Of a DNA stretch of 46,716 bases, positions 1 through 5,766 are shown in pieces. The stretch covers positions 1 to 46,716 of the forward strand of contig JAFGDS010000092.1 of assembly GCA_016931995.1 (NCBI GenBank), given 5' to 3'. The translations under genes and the position numbers were made by a program. The stretch is from Pirellulales bacterium (GTDB taxonomy: Bacteria > Planctomycetota > Planctomycetia > Pirellulales > Thermoguttaceae). Each line of letters opens with the position of its first letter. Within the stretch, counting starts at the first letter, position 1. The notes under the pieces were generated by a model, which was not told the DNA's origin, did not search any database, and worked only from the letters and a program-made list of their open reading frames with translations.

Positions 1-58
1 GCGCGTCATTCCGAGCGCGGCGCGTCATTCCGAGCGCGGCGCGTCATTCTGAGCGCAG
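1..58. repeat. 19-bp tandem repeat, three units
   Basis: Three head-to-tail copies of a 19-base unit, GCGCGTCATTCCGAGCGCG, start at 1, 20 and 39. The third copy has a T for C change and runs into the REP-like palindrome that follows. The unit resembles the left arm of that palindrome, so this looks like local duplication of a palindrome arm. The units abut with no spacers, so this is not a CRISPR array. Confidence 0.8.
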
Positions 59-114
59 CGAAGAATCTCCTTAACGCTCGCGGACGCGAGATCCTTCGCT
101 GCGCTCAGGACGAC
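43..114. repeat. REP-like inverted repeat
   Basis: The arm GTCATTCTGAGCGCAGCGAA (43 onward) is matched in reverse complement by the arm ending at 114, with a short spacer around 70-87. A related pair occurs at 35235-35306. It is a dispersed intergenic palindrome rather than a gene. Confidence 0.8.
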
Positions 115-137
115 GATCGATGCGCGCGGTCTATCCT

Positions 138-196
138 GTGGCACAGCCGCCCTCGGCTGTGTTGGCTGATTTTCACGGCCGAGGCGGCCGTGCCAC
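138..196. repeat. GTGGCAC-type hairpin repeat
   Basis: The arm beginning GTGGCACAGCCGCCCTCGGC (138-161) pairs with the arm at 174-196, which ends GGCGGCCGTGCCAC. The terminal GTGGCAC/GTGCCAC relates it to the hairpins at 5796, 40815, 44779 and 44857. It lies in the gap after cas9. Confidence 0.7.
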
Positions 197-215
197 GCGA
201 GGGCCCTCACCCCGT

Positions 216-242
216 CCCCTCTCCCGCGTCGCGGGAGAGGGG
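216..242 (-). terminator. Hairpin just past the cas9 stop
   Basis: A perfect 12-bp stem, CCCCTCTCCCGC/GCGGGAGAGGGG with a 3-base loop, begins 8 bases after the cas9 stop codon. It has no T-run on the cas9 strand, so it may be a weak terminator or 3'-end stabiliser. It belongs to the CCTCTCCC/GGGAGAGG palindrome family also seen at 26655 and 38165. Confidence 0.5.
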
Positions 243-250
243 AGGTTTTG

Positions 251-3200
251 TCAATCGCCCGCGCGGCGGATCTCGCCCAACGGATCGAGCGTCACCTTGC
301 GGGCATTAAGAGTGTTGGCATTGGCAGTGTACTTTCGGTATTCCTTCTTCTTCCTGGCATCTGTGTGTTCGGCAAACACCATCTGTAGCGAAGTTGAAGG
401 AACCGTTTTGAAAACGAGGAGCTTCTCCTCACCCTTCCAGTTGGCCAGGACCATCTCGCCGCGCGACAGGGACATGATGAACTTCGCCTCCGGCCGCTTG
501 GGATGCGTTCGTTGGATTACCCGCTCCTTCCGTTTTACTCGGGCCGCCGCCTCGAGCATCGAGATCGGTACGGCCTCTCGCTTCGTTTTGCCCTTCGCCG
601 TAAACTCGAAAATACATACGTGGTGATTTTTGCCGGGTTTGACACACACTTCGCCTGGCGCGCCATTGCGAATCGATCGAATCGTGCCATCTTTCTTCTC
701 AACGCGGACTTTTTTGATTGGTACTCCGGAACACATCCTCAAATTCGCCAAGGCCTTGGCCAAAGCCGCTCTCCATTTAGGACCTCCTGTCGTGCCGCGA
801 CCGAATTTTACCCCGTGCTCCCGCAACCGCTCGACGACGATCCGCTTGATCCCCGCGTCGCGGATGCCGTCGATCTCGTTGGGGGAGAGCGATTCCACCG
901 GCTTCCGGGCGACCCAAACGCCCTCGGTTTCCGTTTTGCCGTAGAACGTCTCCTCGTGCAACTTGCCGCTCGTCTTGCGCGACGCGCGGTGGGAGACCTT
1001 GATGTCGCGGACGATCCGCGCAACGTCGTCGCGCAAGGAAAGCCACGGATCGACGACCAGCTCGCCGGTTGCTTCGGTCCCACCCTGTGCATGGATGCGG
1101 GAAAGCTCCTGCAGCCGCTTCCGGCTGGTCAGGGCGAGCACGATGGCGTCGATCACGTGGTGGCGGTGGTCCGCCCGATTCTTCTCGCCATCGCGGAGCT
1201 TGCCTTGCTCCTGCCAGGCGGGGCTGTCGGGCAGTTCGGCCAGGACCGTGTCGAGCCCCCAACCGTGCCGCAGCTCGGCCGTGAGCTGGCCCTTCAGGCC
1301 CAGCACGTGATGGGGCGCCTCGAACAGACACCGCAGATACTCCCCGGCGAGCCGCGCGATATACCGCGTGTCGTTGAGCTGACGCGAGATGAAATCGTCC
1401 AGTTCGACCGTCTTCTGCGTGAACCGGCGATACTTGCCGTACGGCATACGCCCATCGCGCATCAGGGCGCTTGCCCGCACGCAAATCGCCTCGTATCGCT
1501 CCGGCTGGCCGTGGGCGAGCCACTCGTAGGGCGTCCGGTCCGACTTGTCGGCGTTCGCCTTGCGGAAGCAGACCACCAAGTTGTTCTGCGAATCGTCCAA
1601 CGACTTCGACCGCGGCAGAATGTGGTCCACGTCGACCTCACCGCCAAAAAGCTGCGCGAAGCTGATCGACTTGGCCGGGTGCGAATACATGCACTCCTGC
1701 TTCTGATCTTCCCAGAGAAGGTAACGGTTGATGTTGTCGCGGGTGACCGGCTGCCCATAGTCGCGCAGCGCCTGGGCAGCGGCCGCGCGCCGGGCCTCCC
1801 GCTCGCGTTGCTCGGCGATCCGGTCCTGGTACTTCCGGTACGCCTCCGTTCCCCTGCGGGGGCGCGTCTTCACGTCGCGGCCCATCTCGACGTGCACCGC
1901 GCTGGGCCGGCCGTGCTTGCGCAAGATGGCGTTGACCACCTTGCGCAGCTCGACGAGCGTCCGACGCACCACGGGGTTGGGTAGGTCGCCGATCGGGCAG
2001 TCGCGCACGCGCTGCGGGTTGGGCAGCTTGTCGAACAGCCGTCGCCGCAGCTCGTCGCGACGCAGATACCCCGCCGCGTGCAGGGCGCTTCGCTCCGTGT
2101 CGCTCTCGGCTTGATAGACCAGGCCCTTCTCCATGTGTGGAAGCAGCTTGTCGATCGCCTTCAGGCTCAAATTGGCATACCCGTCGGGCAAGTCCGCCTC
2201 GACGGCCGCCTTGGCCTGCGCGTCCGTCATGCCGAACTCGTCCACCAGCCGACGCTGGAGGGCCGCGTCGTCCTGCTGGTTGTCGATCAAGAGCCGCACG
2301 ATGGCGTTCTTTTCCTCTTCGGGTCGGTCGTGCCACTTTTTGCCGGTGGCCGTGGCCAATCGGACGTCGACCACCAGGCCCAAGAGATAGGGTCGCTTGC
2401 CCTTTTCGAGATTAAACCGGATGCTCTCCAGGAACCCAAGTGCCTTGCGGATCTGGTCGAACGTCATCTTCTCGGTCTGACCTAGCTTGTCCAGCAAGAG
2501 CGCGCGTTGCTCGTCGTCGAGCGGCCGGGGCTCCGTCCGCGCGCCCAGATCGACGTACCGCAGGTTGTTCACCTCCTGCAACAGCCGAAACCGCTGCGCC
2601 CGCCGGTCGGCCCTGGGACATCGCTTCTGCTTGGGCTCGAGTTCGCACTGGCCGACGACCGACCGGGGCCAGAACATGGGCCGCTGAAAGAAGATGAGCC
2701 CGTGCAGGCCAAACTCCTCCAGCGGCGAGCGGCCCGCCTTGCGCGGCGCCGGCCGGGCCGGATACGTCCGCTTGCCTTGGTCGCCGTATTTGAGGGCGTC
2801 GGTCAGCAGGTCGGCGTGGCCCAGCGCGCGCTGCGCCTGCCAGATGGCCTCGAACTCCGCCTCGTACATGGCGCGCCGCGTGTGGCGCCGGCGGAGGTGG
2901 TCGTCCTCGCCGCGTTTCTTGTGGTCCAACCGGCGCGACTTCTCGCCGAGCCATTGGCCGAGCGTCTTGCAGCCGCTTTGCTGGATGCTGGCTTCGATCT
3001 GGCTGATTTCCGCCAGCATACCCTTGAGCTCCGCGTCGCCGCGGTCCTTCTTCTTATTGGATTGAAACCCTCGCCGCTGGGCCAGATGGTAGAACACCCG
3101 GCCAAGCTCATGCGGCGCGAGCTTCTCCGAGAGCGCCCGGGCGCGGAGTTGATACGGATCGGCGTCCCGCAGGGCCTTCAATGCCTCGGGCTCCTCGGGC

Positions 3201-3451
3201 CACAGCCCGGCCTCGACCAACGCTTCGCGCACGAGGGCCTTGCGCCGGCGGCGGCGTTGGATCTGCCGTCGCATCCCCCGGGCGACCCGCCGGCCCTCGG
3301 TGGGCGAGACCTCCTTGGCCGTGTCGAACTGATCCACCCCCTCCGGAAACACGCGAACGCCCGCGTCGACGATCGTTTGGTTGTCCTCGTCAATCAGCGC
3401 CCATCCGATGGAGTTTGGGCCGAGATCGAGCCCAAGTGTAAGTCCCGCCAT
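251..3451 (-). CDS. cas9: Cas9 RNA-guided endonuclease, type II-C size
   Basis: This is the type II CRISPR effector, which cuts DNA at sites chosen by a guide RNA with an HNH and a split RuvC nuclease domain. The catalytic positions are all visible: RuvC-I D9 in LGLDLGPNSIGW, an arginine-rich bridge helix at about 53-83, RuvC-II E522 in VHVEMGRD, HNH D609-H610 in DVDHILPRS with N633 placed 23 residues after the histidine as in other Cas9s, and RuvC-III H765 and D768 in HHVIDAIVLAL. The region after about 820 would carry the wedge and PAM-interacting parts. At 1066 residues it has the size of type II-C proteins; the subtype is inferred. The ATG lies directly before RuvC-I. No cas1, cas2, csn2 or array follows in the 250 bases left of the stop. 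A tracrRNA-like gene diverges from its 5' side. Confidence 0.97.
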   Translation of the reverse strand: MAGLTLGLDLGPNSIGWALIDEDNQTIVDAGVRVFPEGVDQFDTAKEVSPTEGRRVARGMRRQIQRRRRRKALVREALVEAGLWPEEPEALKALRDADPYQLRARALSEKLAPHELGRVFYHLAQRRGFQSNKKKDRGDAELKGMLAEISQIEASIQQSGCKTLGQWLGEKSRRLDHKKRGEDDHLRRRHTRRAMYEAEFEAIWQAQRALGHADLLTDALKYGDQGKRTYPARPAPRKAGRSPLEEFGLHGLIFFQRPMFWPRSVVGQCELEPKQKRCPRADRRAQRFRLLQEVNNLRYVDLGARTEPRPLDDEQRALLLDKLGQTEKMTFDQIRKALGFLESIRFNLEKGKRPYLLGLVVDVRLATATGKKWHDRPEEEKNAIVRLLIDNQQDDAALQRRLVDEFGMTDAQAKAAVEADLPDGYANLSLKAIDKLLPHMEKGLVYQAESDTERSALHAAGYLRRDELRRRLFDKLPNPQRVRDCPIGDLPNPVVRRTLVELRKVVNAILRKHGRPSAVHVEMGRDVKTRPRRGTEAYRKYQDRIAEQREREARRAAAAQALRDYGQPVTRDNINRYLLWEDQKQECMYSHPAKSISFAQLFGGEVDVDHILPRSKSLDDSQNNLVVCFRKANADKSDRTPYEWLAHGQPERYEAICVRASALMRDGRMPYGKYRRFTQKTVELDDFISRQLNDTRYIARLAGEYLRCLFEAPHHVLGLKGQLTAELRHGWGLDTVLAELPDSPAWQEQGKLRDGEKNRADHRHHVIDAIVLALTSRKRLQELSRIHAQGGTEATGELVVDPWLSLRDDVARIVRDIKVSHRASRKTSGKLHEETFYGKTETEGVWVARKPVESLSPNEIDGIRDAGIKRIVVERLREHGVKFGRGTTGGPKWRAALAKALANLRMCSGVPIKKVRVEKKDGTIRSIRNGAPGEVCVKPGKNHHVCIFEFTAKGKTKREAVPISMLEAAARVKRKERVIQRTHPKRPEAKFIMSLSRGEMVLANWKGEEKLLVFKTVPSTSLQMVFAEHTDARKKKEYRKYTANANTLNARKVTLDPLGEIRRAGD

Positions 3452-3522
3452 GATTTGCCCTCGCTCTGAAGAGGCCGATACCCCACCATGGAGAGATGGC
3501 CGGAACTTTGCGATCCGGTCGC

Positions 3523-3551
3523 TTGACGTCGTTGTATCGGATTGGTAAGGT
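3523..3551 (+). promoter_or_regulatory. Candidate promoter of the tracrRNA-like gene
   Basis: A TTGACG -35 box (3523-3528) is followed after exactly 17 bases by TAAGGT (3546-3551). The -35 matches consensus at 5 of 6 positions and the -10 at only 3 of 6. Its placement, pointing away from cas9 and just upstream of a hairpin series ending in a terminator, makes it the best promoter candidate here. Transcription would begin near 3558. Confidence 0.45.
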
Positions 3552-3557
3552 GATGAC

Positions 3558-3664
3558 TAGTGTAACCGATCCCAGCCTGCGGCTTTTCGCAACAACAACG
3601 ACGAAACATTCGCAGGCACTGCTCCGCGGAGCAGCCGGCCGTCTCTCACGGGGCGGCCTTTTTT
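3558..3664 (+). ncRNA. Candidate tracrRNA, divergent from cas9
   Basis: A roughly 107-base transcript is predicted between a promoter-like sequence and a strong terminator. The 5' half (about 3558-3596) has no stable self-structure and could be the anti-repeat. The 3' half carries a compact hairpin, CTGCTC-CGCG-GAGCAG (3619-3634), and then the terminator stem (3637-3658) with six T residues. A single-stranded anti-repeat followed by a nexus-like hairpin and a terminator hairpin is the usual tracrRNA layout, and a place just 5' of cas9 is common for type II-C loci. A competing 7-bp pairing, GCCTGCG (3575-3581) with CGCAGGC (3611-3617), could form when no crRNA is bound. No CRISPR repeat is present in the window to test the anti-repeat, so identity is inferred. 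Confidence 0.6.
3637..3664 (+). terminator. Rho-independent terminator of the tracrRNA-like gene
   Basis: A 9-bp stem, GGCCGTCTC (3637-3645) with GGGGCGGCC (3650-3658), includes two G-U pairs and a TCAC tetraloop, and is followed by TTTTTT (3659-3664). This is the most canonical intrinsic terminator in the window. No protein gene on this strand precedes it, which supports a small RNA gene ending here. Confidence 0.85.
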
Positions 3665-3795
3665 GTTGGCCGGTTGACGCGCCCGGCCGCGAGGGTTCAG
3701 GATAGGGGGCGCGCGTGCCGCGCGCCTGCCGTTGGTTTGCCGCAACGGGCTTCGCCCGGGCCGTCCCGCCTCAAACCGCAAGGAGATTCCTCGCC

Positions 3796-5766
3796 ATGAC
3801 GCGATTGTCTGTTCTTGTTGTTGGTTTTGTTCTTGCCGCGCCGGCGGCGGTTGGCCTGGCCCCGGCGGCCGAGCCGATCGGCGTGACGATCCACGCGGAC
3901 CAGAAGCGGCCCGAGGCCAATCCGTTTCTCTACGGTCAGTTCATCGAACATTTGGGCCGGTGCGTCTACGGGGGCATTTGGGCCGAGATGCTCGAGGACC
4001 GGAAGTTCTTCTTCCCGATCGCGAAGGATTACGCGCCGTATACGGGCTTGGTGGATTCGCGGTTTCCCGTGGTGGGGGCGTCGCCCTGGGAGATCCTGGG
4101 TGATCCGGAGGGCGTGCGCATGGCGACCGACGCGCCGTTTGTCGGCCGGCACGCGCCGGAAATCGCGCCCGGGGCGGGCATCCGGCAGCGCGACTTGGGC
4201 GTGGTCGATCGGAAGCAGTACGTGGGTTACATTTGGCTCGCGGCCGCGGGCAACGAGGCGAGTTCGGTGGACGTGACGCTCGCGTGGGGCGACGACGACG
4301 GCGCGCGGCGGACGCGGACGCTTTCGGCCGCGCCGGGCGAATACCGGAAGCACGCCTTGTCGTTTACCGCCGGGGCCGGGACGGACAAGGCGACGCTCGA
4401 AATCCGGGTAACCGCCGGCGGGGCGGCGCGGGTGGGCACGCTCTCGCTCATGCCGGCCGACAACGTCCGCGGCATGAGGGCGGACACGCTCGCGGTGCTG
4501 AAACAACTGGATTCGCCGATGTATCGGTGGCCCGGCGGTAATTTCGTCAGCGGCTACGACTGGCGCGACGGGCTCGGCCCTCGCGACCGTCGGGCGCCGC
4601 GGCGCAATCCCGCCTGGACGGGCGTGGAGCACAACGACTTCGGCATCGACGAGTTCCTGGATTTCTGCCGCGAGTTGAAGACGGAGCCGTTGATCGCCGT
4701 GAACACGGGCTTCGGCGACGCATTCTCCGCCGCGCAAGAAGTGGAATACTGCAACGCGCCGGCCGACACGATCGGCGGCTCGTGGCGGGCAAAAAACGGC
4801 CACCCAGAGCCCTACGCCGTGCGCTACTGGTGCGTCGGCAACGAGATGTTTGGCCCCTGGCAGTTGGGGTTCATGCAACTGAGCCACTACACGCAAAAGC
4901 ACAACCTGGTCGCCGAGGCCATGCGCGGGGTCGATCCGACGGTGAAGCTCATCGGCGTGGGTTGCCTGGGCGGGAGAAACCCCAGGCACGATCCGGACGA
5001 GAAGCGCGGTTGGTCCCGCGCGATGCTCGAGCAGTGCGGCGGCGCGATGGACTACATCTCGGAGCACTTTTACGTGGGCGAGCGGAAGGACAATCCCGTC
5101 GAGCACGCGCAACGTATGGTGAACGAAATCCGCCAGCGGGCGGAGGGACACCGCAAGCTCCAGGCCGAGTTGAAGCAGTTGGGCGGTCGCGTCATTCCCA
5201 TCGCCATGGATGAATGGAACTACTGGTACCATCCCTATGAATATGGCGAAGCCGGTTGCGTGTATCAGTTGCGCGACGCGCTGGGCGTGGCGGCGGGCTT
5301 GCACGAGTATCTCCGCAACACGGACGTTATCGAGATGGCCCATTACGCGCAGACGGTAAACGTCCTCGGCTGCGTGAAGACGACCAGGACCGAGGCATTT
5401 CTCTCGACGACGGCCCTGCCGTTGCTGCTGTACCGCCGGCAGTTCGGCGCGACGCCGGTCGTCGTGTCGGGCGACCACGGCGCGGCGGCGCTGGACGTCG
5501 CCGCCGCCTTGACGGCGGACGGGCGCGCACTGACCGTGGGCGTGGTCAATCCCAACGGCGAGGAGAAGACGATCGAGTTGGCGGTCGAGGCCGTCGGCGT
5601 CGCGGACCGCGCTCGATTGTGGCGGATCGCGGGCCCCGATCCGGGCGCGTTCAACGCCCCGGGAAAGCAAGCGGTTGCGATCGCGGGGCCGGAGGAGGCG
5701 CCGTTCGACGGAACGCTAAGCGTGCCGGCGTACAGCGTGAGTCTCTATCGGGTTCCGTTGAAGTAG
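3796..5766 (+). CDS. Secreted GH51 alpha-L-arabinofuranosidase
   Basis: It is predicted to release terminal arabinofuranose from arabinan, arabinoxylan or arabinogalactan outside the cytoplasm. A signal peptide ends at about residue 25 (GLAPAAEP). The GH51 hallmark FGQFIEH-like segment appears as YGQFIEHLG near 45. The acid/base glutamate is E350 in CVGNEMFG, and the nucleophile is E473 in AMDEWNYW. The 656 residues include an insert between the N-terminal strand and the barrel (about 90-230) that may be a carbohydrate-binding beta-sandwich. The ATG at 3796 has AAGGAGA 10 bases upstream; an in-frame start at 3715 would put the signal peptide internally and is rejected. It stands alone between the tracrRNA-like gene and a convergent membrane protein gene. 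Confidence 0.93.
   Translation: MTRLSVLVVGFVLAAPAAVGLAPAAEPIGVTIHADQKRPEANPFLYGQFIEHLGRCVYGGIWAEMLEDRKFFFPIAKDYAPYTGLVDSRFPVVGASPWEILGDPEGVRMATDAPFVGRHAPEIAPGAGIRQRDLGVVDRKQYVGYIWLAAAGNEASSVDVTLAWGDDDGARRTRTLSAAPGEYRKHALSFTAGAGTDKATLEIRVTAGGAARVGTLSLMPADNVRGMRADTLAVLKQLDSPMYRWPGGNFVSGYDWRDGLGPRDRRAPRRNPAWTGVEHNDFGIDEFLDFCRELKTEPLIAVNTGFGDAFSAAQEVEYCNAPADTIGGSWRAKNGHPEPYAVRYWCVGNEMFGPWQLGFMQLSHYTQKHNLVAEAMRGVDPTVKLIGVGCLGGRNPRHDPDEKRGWSRAMLEQCGGAMDYISEHFYVGERKDNPVEHAQRMVNEIRQRAEGHRKLQAELKQLGGRVIPIAMDEWNYWYHPYEYGEAGCVYQLRDALGVAAGLHEYLRNTDVIEMAHYAQTVNVLGCVKTTRTEAFLSTTALPLLLYRRQFGATPVVVSGDHGAAALDVAAALTADGRALTVGVVNPNGEEKTIELAVEAVGVADRARLWRIAGPDPGAFNAPGKQAVAIAGPEEAPFDGTLSVPAYSVSLYRVPLK

What the first reader, a model, noticed from the sequence alone, without database searches (positions are those of the whole stretch)
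3523..3664. Predicted tracrRNA allows the missing CRISPR repeat to be forecast
If 3558-3596 is the anti-repeat, the CRISPR repeat paired to it should contain something close to GTTGTTGCGAAAAGCCGC (the complement of 3579-3596) near its start, which resembles the GTTGT- start of many type II-C repeats. The following hairpin 3619-3634 and terminator 3637-3664 fit the nexus and 3' hairpin. An internal alternative stem (3575-3581 with 3611-3617) would hide part of the anti-repeat when no crRNA is present.
Basis: inference. Interest (0 to 1): 0.65.

Follow-up and report, generated by a model that had tools for sequence, protein, structure and literature searches.

The report
Self-folding guide RNA beside cas9
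The stretch beside a bacterial cas9 gene encodes the helper RNA (tracrRNA) of that CRISPR system, and comparison with relatives suggests that this RNA folds back on its own CRISPR-binding part until a matching CRISPR RNA opens it, a possible built-in safety catch.

Summary
Relatives carry a similar RNA upstream of cas9, and their arrays show the family repeat. The anti-repeat is the exact complement of the last 23 nt of one relative's repeat, so the forecast is right in direction and GTTG start, but its exact 18-mer is wrong. I found no matching repeat or type II cas1 in this 153-contig assembly. The contig ends in dispersed repeats 250 nt after cas9, so loss is undecided; a single-contig relative has cas9 and tracrRNA with no array found.
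It is in the predicted minimum-energy fold of 28 of 28 GTTGCGG-type tracrRNAs. In 23 of 23 hand-drawn Cas9-tree clusters the anti-repeat pairs better with its own downstream segment than with segments swapped from other clusters. The stem competes with the nexus-position hairpin. I infer a self-sequestered tracrRNA opened by strand displacement. Against: column covariation on a tree is modest, the window alone is not significant, and four flavobacterial tracrRNAs lack the fold.

The parts
251..3451 (-). cas9, type II-C, 1066 aa, open frame intact; RuvC (DLG at residue 9, HHVIDA at 764) and HNH (DVDHILP at 607) motifs present
   Evidence: TIGR01865 9.7e-204, HNH_4 and RuvC_III, motif positions
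3523..3551 (+). putative tracrRNA promoter: TTGACG, 17 nt, TAAGGT
   Evidence: by eye; TTGAC in 21 of 22 upstream stretches printed; not found by the consensus scan
3559..3593 (+). tracrRNA anti-repeat
   Evidence: 3559-3581 is the exact complement of the 3' 23 nt of the G003 (L049) repeat; duplex with that repeat -66.0 kcal/mol
3559..3574 (+). segment left single-stranded in the free fold (proposed toehold)
   Evidence: unpaired in the MFE; first 12 nt paired 0.21 in the window, 0.26 on average over 73 tracrRNAs
3575..3582 (+). segment B of the anti-repeat, can pair with the crRNA repeat or with B'
3588..3593 (+). site C (CGCAAC), pairs with the repeat 5' end GTTGCG; in the free fold its first three bases are in the inner stem and its last three in the loop
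3602..3612 (+). 4-bp nexus-position hairpin CGAA-ACA-TTCG; predicted P 0.00 in the free RNA and 0.72 with the anti-repeat blocked
3610..3617 (+). segment B' (TCGCAGGC), complement of B, overlaps the 3' strand of the nexus-position hairpin
3619..3634 (+). second hairpin CTGCTC-CGCG-GAGCAG; relatives have hairpins here with changed pairs
   Evidence: 12 distinct stems among 28 GTTGCGG-type tracrRNAs
3637..3664 (+). intrinsic terminator
1..250 (.). contig end made of dispersed repeats, where most relatives have the start of a cas1-like frame
   Evidence: 74 matches listed in the own genome, itself included; gaps in relatives

Best explanation
3559-3664 is the tracrRNA of a type II-C CRISPR-Cas9 system, transcribed away from cas9. 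Shown by sequence and comparison: anti-repeat, match to the family repeat, hairpins, terminator. Supported by comparison and prediction, not by experiment: without crRNA the 3' two thirds of the anti-repeat fold onto the segment just after it (B 3575-3582 with B' 3610-3617), hiding most of the repeat-binding part and excluding the nexus-position hairpin, while the 5' end (3559-3574) stays open. Inferred mechanism: the 3' half of a CRISPR repeat lands on the open 5' end, displaces B' by branch migration (the GCAGGC core of the family repeat is also the core of B'), and the freed strand forms the nexus-position hairpin, so that Cas9 loads a tracrRNA only with a true crRNA. The genome's own repeat should be close to GTTGCGGATTGSTCGCAGGCTGGGATCGGTTACACT. 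(The tracrRNA identity alone I hold at about 0.97; the confidence given is for the whole statement.)
For: tracrRNA: Cas9 families; similar RNA upstream of cas9 in relatives; arrays after cas9 with matching repeats; fold z -3.52. Switch: B:B' with at least 5 pairs in the MFE of 28 of 28 GTTGCGG-type tracrRNAs. Free-fold pairing of anti-repeat with downstream 0.63 against 0.42 for shuffled downstream; own value above the shuffle mean in 70 of 73. Own downstream better than swapped downstream in 23 of 23 clusters, 0.59 against 0.36. In 35 tracrRNAs with known repeat, 35 of 350 anti-repeat cells do not pair with the repeat and 22 of those pair with B'; at position b7 9 of 9 (no null computed for this count). 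Of 16 both-sided changes on the tree 9 end paired, among them L050, L104, L164 and the L183/L203/L204/L195 clade. Nexus-position hairpin mean P 0.05 free against 0.50 with the anti-repeat blocked, higher in 61 of 66 and in 21 of 21 cluster means.
Against: The window alone is not significant. Column covariation on the tree is modest: p 0.11 with B' re-evolved, 0.023 with B re-evolved; permutation ignoring the tree p 0.011. One-sided changes on the tree break a pair 35 times and keep it 27 times. Over all ten positions the anti-repeat pairs with its repeat in 315 and with B' in 259 of 350 cells. Only 13 of 73 are individually below p 0.05. Four flavobacterial tracrRNAs show no such pairing (0.00-0.04), and the two others found in that set are not significant. 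Blocking the anti-repeat can hardly lower a downstream hairpin, so one search is consistent rather than probative; in many GTTGCGG types the 3-bp hairpin stays at P below 0.1 even when blocked. Clusters were drawn by hand from the tree (L044 and L215 placed without it) and are not fully independent. No matching repeat found in this assembly. Everything rests on predicted folds.
Confidence: 0.55

Rival explanations
1. An ordinary type II-C tracrRNA in which the B:B' complementarity is incidental: the anti-repeat must complement the repeat, the nexus side (GCAGGC) is fixed by Cas9 contacts, and GC-rich RNA pairs anyway. No regulatory meaning.
For: B' is nearly invariant in GTTG-type tracrRNAs; tree-aware test with B' re-evolved p 0.11, and one-sided changes break pairs more often (35) than they keep them (27); window alone at chance; flavobacterial tracrRNAs do without it.
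Against: 23 of 23 clusters favour the own downstream segment over swapped ones; the same topology occurs in families with unrelated repeats, e.g. L055, L171, L217; where anti-repeats depart from their own repeat, 22 of 35 cells pair with B'.
Confidence: 0.27
2. The B:B' helix is part of the mature guide RNA bound by Cas9 (an extra nexus or pseudoknot helix), not an inhibitory state; the crRNA is then held by its 5' end and upper stem only.
For: At position b7 the anti-repeat pairs with B' in 31 of 35 and with the repeat in 26 of 35; the related IscB omegaRNA has a functional nexus pseudoknot (passages of PMC9640706).
Against: At b8 it is 25 for B' against 27 for the repeat, and over the ten positions the repeat pairs in 315 of 350 cells against 259 for B'. 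B' overlaps the nexus-position hairpin, which 66 of 73 can also form by a loose rule without a chance control.
Confidence: 0.14
3. In this genome the RNA is a leftover: the array and adaptation genes are gone and Cas9 plus tracrRNA persist without a job or with another one. (Compatible with the best explanation.)
For: No type II cas1 found (best 26.5 bits, at the type I-C-like locus, cut-off 120) and no matching repeat; dispersed repeats fill the place where most relatives have a cas1-like frame; single-contig genome G113 has cas9 and tracrRNA, no type II cas1 above cut-off and no array found; G228 has cas1 with two in-frame stops and three decayed repeats.
Against: The contig ends 250 nt after cas9 inside repeats, so cas1-cas2-array may lie in a gap; cas9 is an intact frame.
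Confidence: 0.35

Closest known systems
Type II-C tracrRNA (e.g. Neisseria, Campylobacter; recalled)
   Same: Upstream of cas9, with cas1-like frame and array after cas9 in relatives; 36-nt repeat; bulged anti-repeat; hairpins and terminator
   Different: No Rfam match at gathering score; the conserved anti-repeat:downstream stem is not described in the listings and passages I saw
tracr-L, long tracrRNA of Streptococcus pyogenes II-A (passages of PMC11417352)
   Same: A tracrRNA with a second, regulatory form (in-cis pairing of its anti-repeat: recalled)
   Different: tracr-L acts as a natural single guide that represses Pcas; here the partner lies 3' of the anti-repeat and no guide is attached
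CRISPRCas_38, a covariance model of Bacteroidetes II-C tracrRNA (passages of PMC9067536)
   Same: Conserved structured II-C tracrRNA whose antirepeat was used to assign arrays, the same idea as forecasting the repeat
   Different: Its figure was not held, so I cannot say which stems it contains; my four flavobacterial examples lack B:B'
IscB omegaRNA nexus pseudoknot (passages of PMC9640706)
   Same: Nexus region engaged in a long-range helix
   Different: There the pseudoknot is part of the active complex; here the helix would compete with the crRNA

Membership tests
type II tracrRNA | anti-repeat complementary to a CRISPR repeat of the same system | tested here: inconclusive
   Exact 23-nt complement to the repeat of relative G003, but no matching repeat found in the own assembly
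type II tracrRNA | adjacent to an intact cas9 | tested here: met
type II tracrRNA | hairpins and intrinsic terminator downstream, also in relatives | tested here: met
type II tracrRNA | transcribed, RNase III-processed with crRNA, bound by Cas9 | not testable with these tools
   needs RNA work
type II-C system | cas9-cas1-cas2-array | tested here: inconclusive
   In this contig only cas9 and tracrRNA. In relatives a cas1-like frame and an array often follow cas9; cas1 confirmed by model only in G098 and, with two stops, G228; cas2 not tested in them
type II-C system | no csn2 or cas4 | not tested
   no search made for either
RNA switch (two exclusive conserved folds) | covariation supporting the alternative helix | tested here: inconclusive
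   23 of 23 clusters in the swap test; p 0.023-0.11 in tree-aware column tests
RNA switch (two exclusive conserved folds) | ligand (crRNA) shifts the fold in experiment | not testable with these tools
   predicted only
tracr-L type natural single guide | pseudo-repeat and guide 5' of the anti-repeat | tested here: not met
   No repeat-like unit in 3452-3800: best 11 of 16 letters of the repeat start

The most novel reading that the evidence does not exclude
Many type II-C tracrRNAs are bistable RNAs: the anti-repeat carries, besides the CRISPR-repeat complement, a conserved complement to the tracrRNA's own nexus region. The free RNA is closed except for a 5' toehold, and only a crRNA with both toehold and core can open it. 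This would proof-read crRNA pairing, limit Cas9 guides made from host transcripts, and tie nexus formation, hence Cas9 loading, to crRNA binding.
Probability: 0.4. Interest if true: 0.78.

Novelty: new variant of a known kind. Interest (0 to 1): 0.6.

Why it matters
Cas9 can take guides from host transcripts (PMC8224270; abstract start, passages). A tracrRNA that hides its anti-repeat until a true repeat displaces the lid would be a natural answer and a handle for engineered, conditional guide RNAs. The corrected repeat forecast also gives a concrete string with which to find this organism's array in raw reads.

Tried and rejected
RNAalifold over a loose alignment gave little structure. RNAduplex against shuffles was noisy, mean z -1.09, 17 of 73 below p 0.05, and was followed by partition-function folds. 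A type II-A comparison failed as a test: three Bacillota plasmid loci with large Cas9 (two annotated with csn2) were read, too few, not counted. The idea that G000's cas1-cas2 belong to this system was rejected: they sit beside 33 repeats of another kind.

Rows dropped: 52 G-genome loci incl. the window were examined; seven were set aside by eye because no convincing anti-repeat lay within 700 nt upstream of cas9 (L046, L048, L091, L099, L108, L109, L128) and L107 as a near-copy, leaving 44. In L046, L099, L108 and L109 a tracrRNA-like stretch was later seen further away; these were not added. Of 80 named loci, 50 had an array, 35 gave a tracrRNA by the rule, 29 were kept after dropping copies and L211. 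Of 15 loci tried by a second rule (mostly Bacteroidetes, L211 among them), 6 gave a tracrRNA: L184, L189, L211, L212 without B:B', L174 and L223 not significant. The tree lacks L044 and L215; column tests on it used 46 of 47.

Papers: search listings plus passages of PMC9640706, PMC12080349, PMC7606464, PMC8224270, PMC11417352, PMC9067536, PMC13131331. In these I saw no report of an anti-repeat hidden by the tracrRNA's own downstream segment; the library holds only open-licence papers.

Full report
WHAT IS THERE. The window is a whole contig (G000:C136, 46,716 nt) of a 5.43-Mb assembly in 153 contigs, 99% complete. Its nearest Cas9 relative in hand, 71% identical, appears under the title of a Pirellulales bacterium MAG among named records (L149, same length and match position as L015), so the organism is probably of that planctomycete group (inference). 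cas9 lies at 251-3451 on the minus strand as an intact frame. The RNA of the finding lies upstream and is divergent from it.

THE RNA. From 3559 to 3664 the strand folds at -43.8 kcal/mol, below all 200 shuffles, with three domains: an 8-bp stem 3575-3582/3610-3617 that closes an inner hairpin, a hairpin at 3619-3634, and a terminator at 3637-3664. By eye, 45 of 52 examined loci including the window have such an RNA within 700 nt upstream of cas9. No Rfam family matches at gathering score.

THE REPEAT. In relatives a cas1-like frame and then an array often follow cas9, mostly with about 1.3-1.6 kb between cas9 and array. In the GTTG-type group the repeat is 36 nt, typically GTTGCGGATTG, a variable core, and an end such as GATCAGTTACACT. 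The last 23 nt of the G003 repeat are the exact complement of 3559-3581, and the whole repeat forms a -66.0 kcal/mol duplex with the window anti-repeat, 8, 2 and 23 bp with a small internal loop and a bulge. A better forecast is GTTGCGGATTGSTCGCAGGCTGGGATCGGTTACACT.

IS THE ARRAY MISSING? The 23-mer with up to 3 mismatches is found only in the tracrRNA itself. The only cas1 and cas2 found belong to another CRISPR locus on contig 145 with 33 repeats GTTTCAATCCACGCCCTCGTGAAGAGGGCGAC, which looks like type I-C (label recalled). In GTTG-type relatives the cas1-like frame mostly starts within about 160 nt of the cas9 stop; here the 250 nt after cas9 are dispersed repeats with 74 listed matches in the genome. 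An assembly gap and a true loss are both open. Loss has precedents: the single-contig genome G113 has cas9 and tracrRNA, but apart from the tracrRNA only one 3-mismatch match to the anti-repeat complement, about 350 kb away, no array in 16 kb around cas9, and no type II cas1 above cut-off (29.9 bits against 120). G228 has a cas1 with two in-frame stops and three decayed repeats.

THE ALTERNATIVE STEM. In 28 of 28 of the GTTGCGG type the minimum-energy fold pairs B with B'. Over the 73, the fraction of the anti-repeat paired with the 45 nt after it is 0.63 against 0.42 when those 45 nt are shuffled; it exceeds the shuffle mean in 70 of 73, while only 13 are individually below p 0.05. The strongest test swaps downstream segments between families: the own segment wins in 23 of 23 clusters, 0.59 against 0.36. 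This is a covariation signal that needs no alignment, though the clusters were drawn by hand from the tree. Column by column in 47 GTTG-type sequences, 342 of 470 cells pair (0.73, against 0.24-0.42 for slid registers); permutation p is 0.011, and on the tree (46 sequences) p is 0.11 with B' re-evolved and 0.023 with B re-evolved. B' is nearly invariant, which limits power. Of 16 both-sided changes on the tree 9 end paired, among them G-C to U-G in L050, G-C to A-U in L104, in L164 and in the L183/L203/L204/L195 clade (with a reversal in L195), and A-A to G-C in L103 plus L110; one-sided changes break a pair 35 times and keep it 27 times. Where the anti-repeat does not pair with its own repeat (35 of 350 cells in 35 tracrRNAs), it pairs with B' in 22, at position b7 in 9 of 9; over all cells it pairs with the repeat in 315 and with B' in 259.

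WHAT THE STEM WOULD DO. Directly after the anti-repeat 66 of 73 can form a small hairpin by a loose rule without a chance control, in very different sequences (GGATC/GATCC in L119, AACGG/CCGTT in L171, GAGGC/GCCTC in L217), at the nexus position. In the window B' overlaps its 3' strand. Predicted probability of this hairpin is 0.05 in the free RNA and 0.50 with the anti-repeat blocked, higher in 61 of 66; for the window 0.00 and 0.72. The direction of this shift is partly built in, because blocking removes a competitor. The 5' 16 nt of the anti-repeat are free in the window's fold. The simplest reading is toehold-mediated strand displacement: repeat 3' half on 3559-3574, displacement of B' by the repeat's own GCAGGC core, then pairing of GTTGCG with CGCAAC and formation of the nexus-position hairpin. 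The anatomy is shown; the fold is predicted; the order of events and the benefit (proof-reading, no loading of empty tracrRNA) are inferred.

LIMITS. Four flavobacterial tracrRNAs show no such pairing, and the two other loci found in that second set (L174, L223) are not significant, so the feature is not universal in II-C. Type II-A was not tested properly. The window taken alone does not beat shuffles. My literature check covers an open-licence library only, and the structure figure of the Bacteroidetes tracrRNA model (PMC9067536) was not visible to me.

SIDE FINDING. In 9 of 93 loci a single repeat sits upstream of cas9 in tracr sense. In five of them (L046, L099, L113, L151, L154) the 10-13 nt just before that repeat recur exactly 55-501 nt upstream of the cas9 start, each followed by a sequence fitting NGGRT, in three cases next to a TTGACA or TTGACG element; in the other four no match of 8 nt or more was found. 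Guides tested against the other loci's regions reach at most 8 nt in 72 pairs. This looks like a type II-C counterpart of cas-regulating CreR guides, which a 2026 review names for types I-B, I-E and V-A (one passage of PMC13131331). I found no such unit in window 3452-3800.

Noticed in passing
L046 ~4038, L113 ~12449 (+ strand); L099, L151, L154 at index 12550, 6723, 5379 of the reverse complement; also L048, L108, L109, L171: Solitary CRISPR repeat upstream of cas9 in tracr sense (9 of 93 loci); in five its 10-13-nt guide end matches exactly upstream of cas9, each time followed by NGGRT: a likely self-repressing crRNA of type II-C systems (CreR-like). Foreign guides reach at most 8 nt in 72 pairs.
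   Followed up: partly
L048, L108, L109: The guide before the solitary repeat is an imperfect tandem copy (about 20 nt) of sequence just upstream of it.
   Followed up: no
L044 (G113), L102 (G228): II-C loci that seem to be eroding in single-contig genomes: cas9 plus tracrRNA with no array or type II cas1 found (G113); cas1 with two in-frame TGA and three decayed repeats (G228).
   Followed up: partly
window 1-250: Contig end built of dispersed repeats, at least two kinds (19-nt tandem unit at 1-60 and others), 74 listed matches genome-wide.
   Followed up: partly
L012 6491-9643 (G000:C145): Type I-C-like array of 33 repeats with cas2 and a cas1 open frame of 171-176 aa matching only positions 182-283 of the Cas1 model, so possibly truncated.
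   Followed up: no
L113 12194-12283: A tRNA-Trp gene lies between the promoter-like site matched by the solitary guide and cas9, on the cas9 strand.
   Followed up: no
L052 and L157, linker after the anti-repeat: Extra small hairpin with a UUCG loop before the B' segment.
   Followed up: no
window 3715-5766 +: Open frame with an alpha-L-arabinofuranosidase C-terminal domain after the tracrRNA terminator.
   Followed up: no
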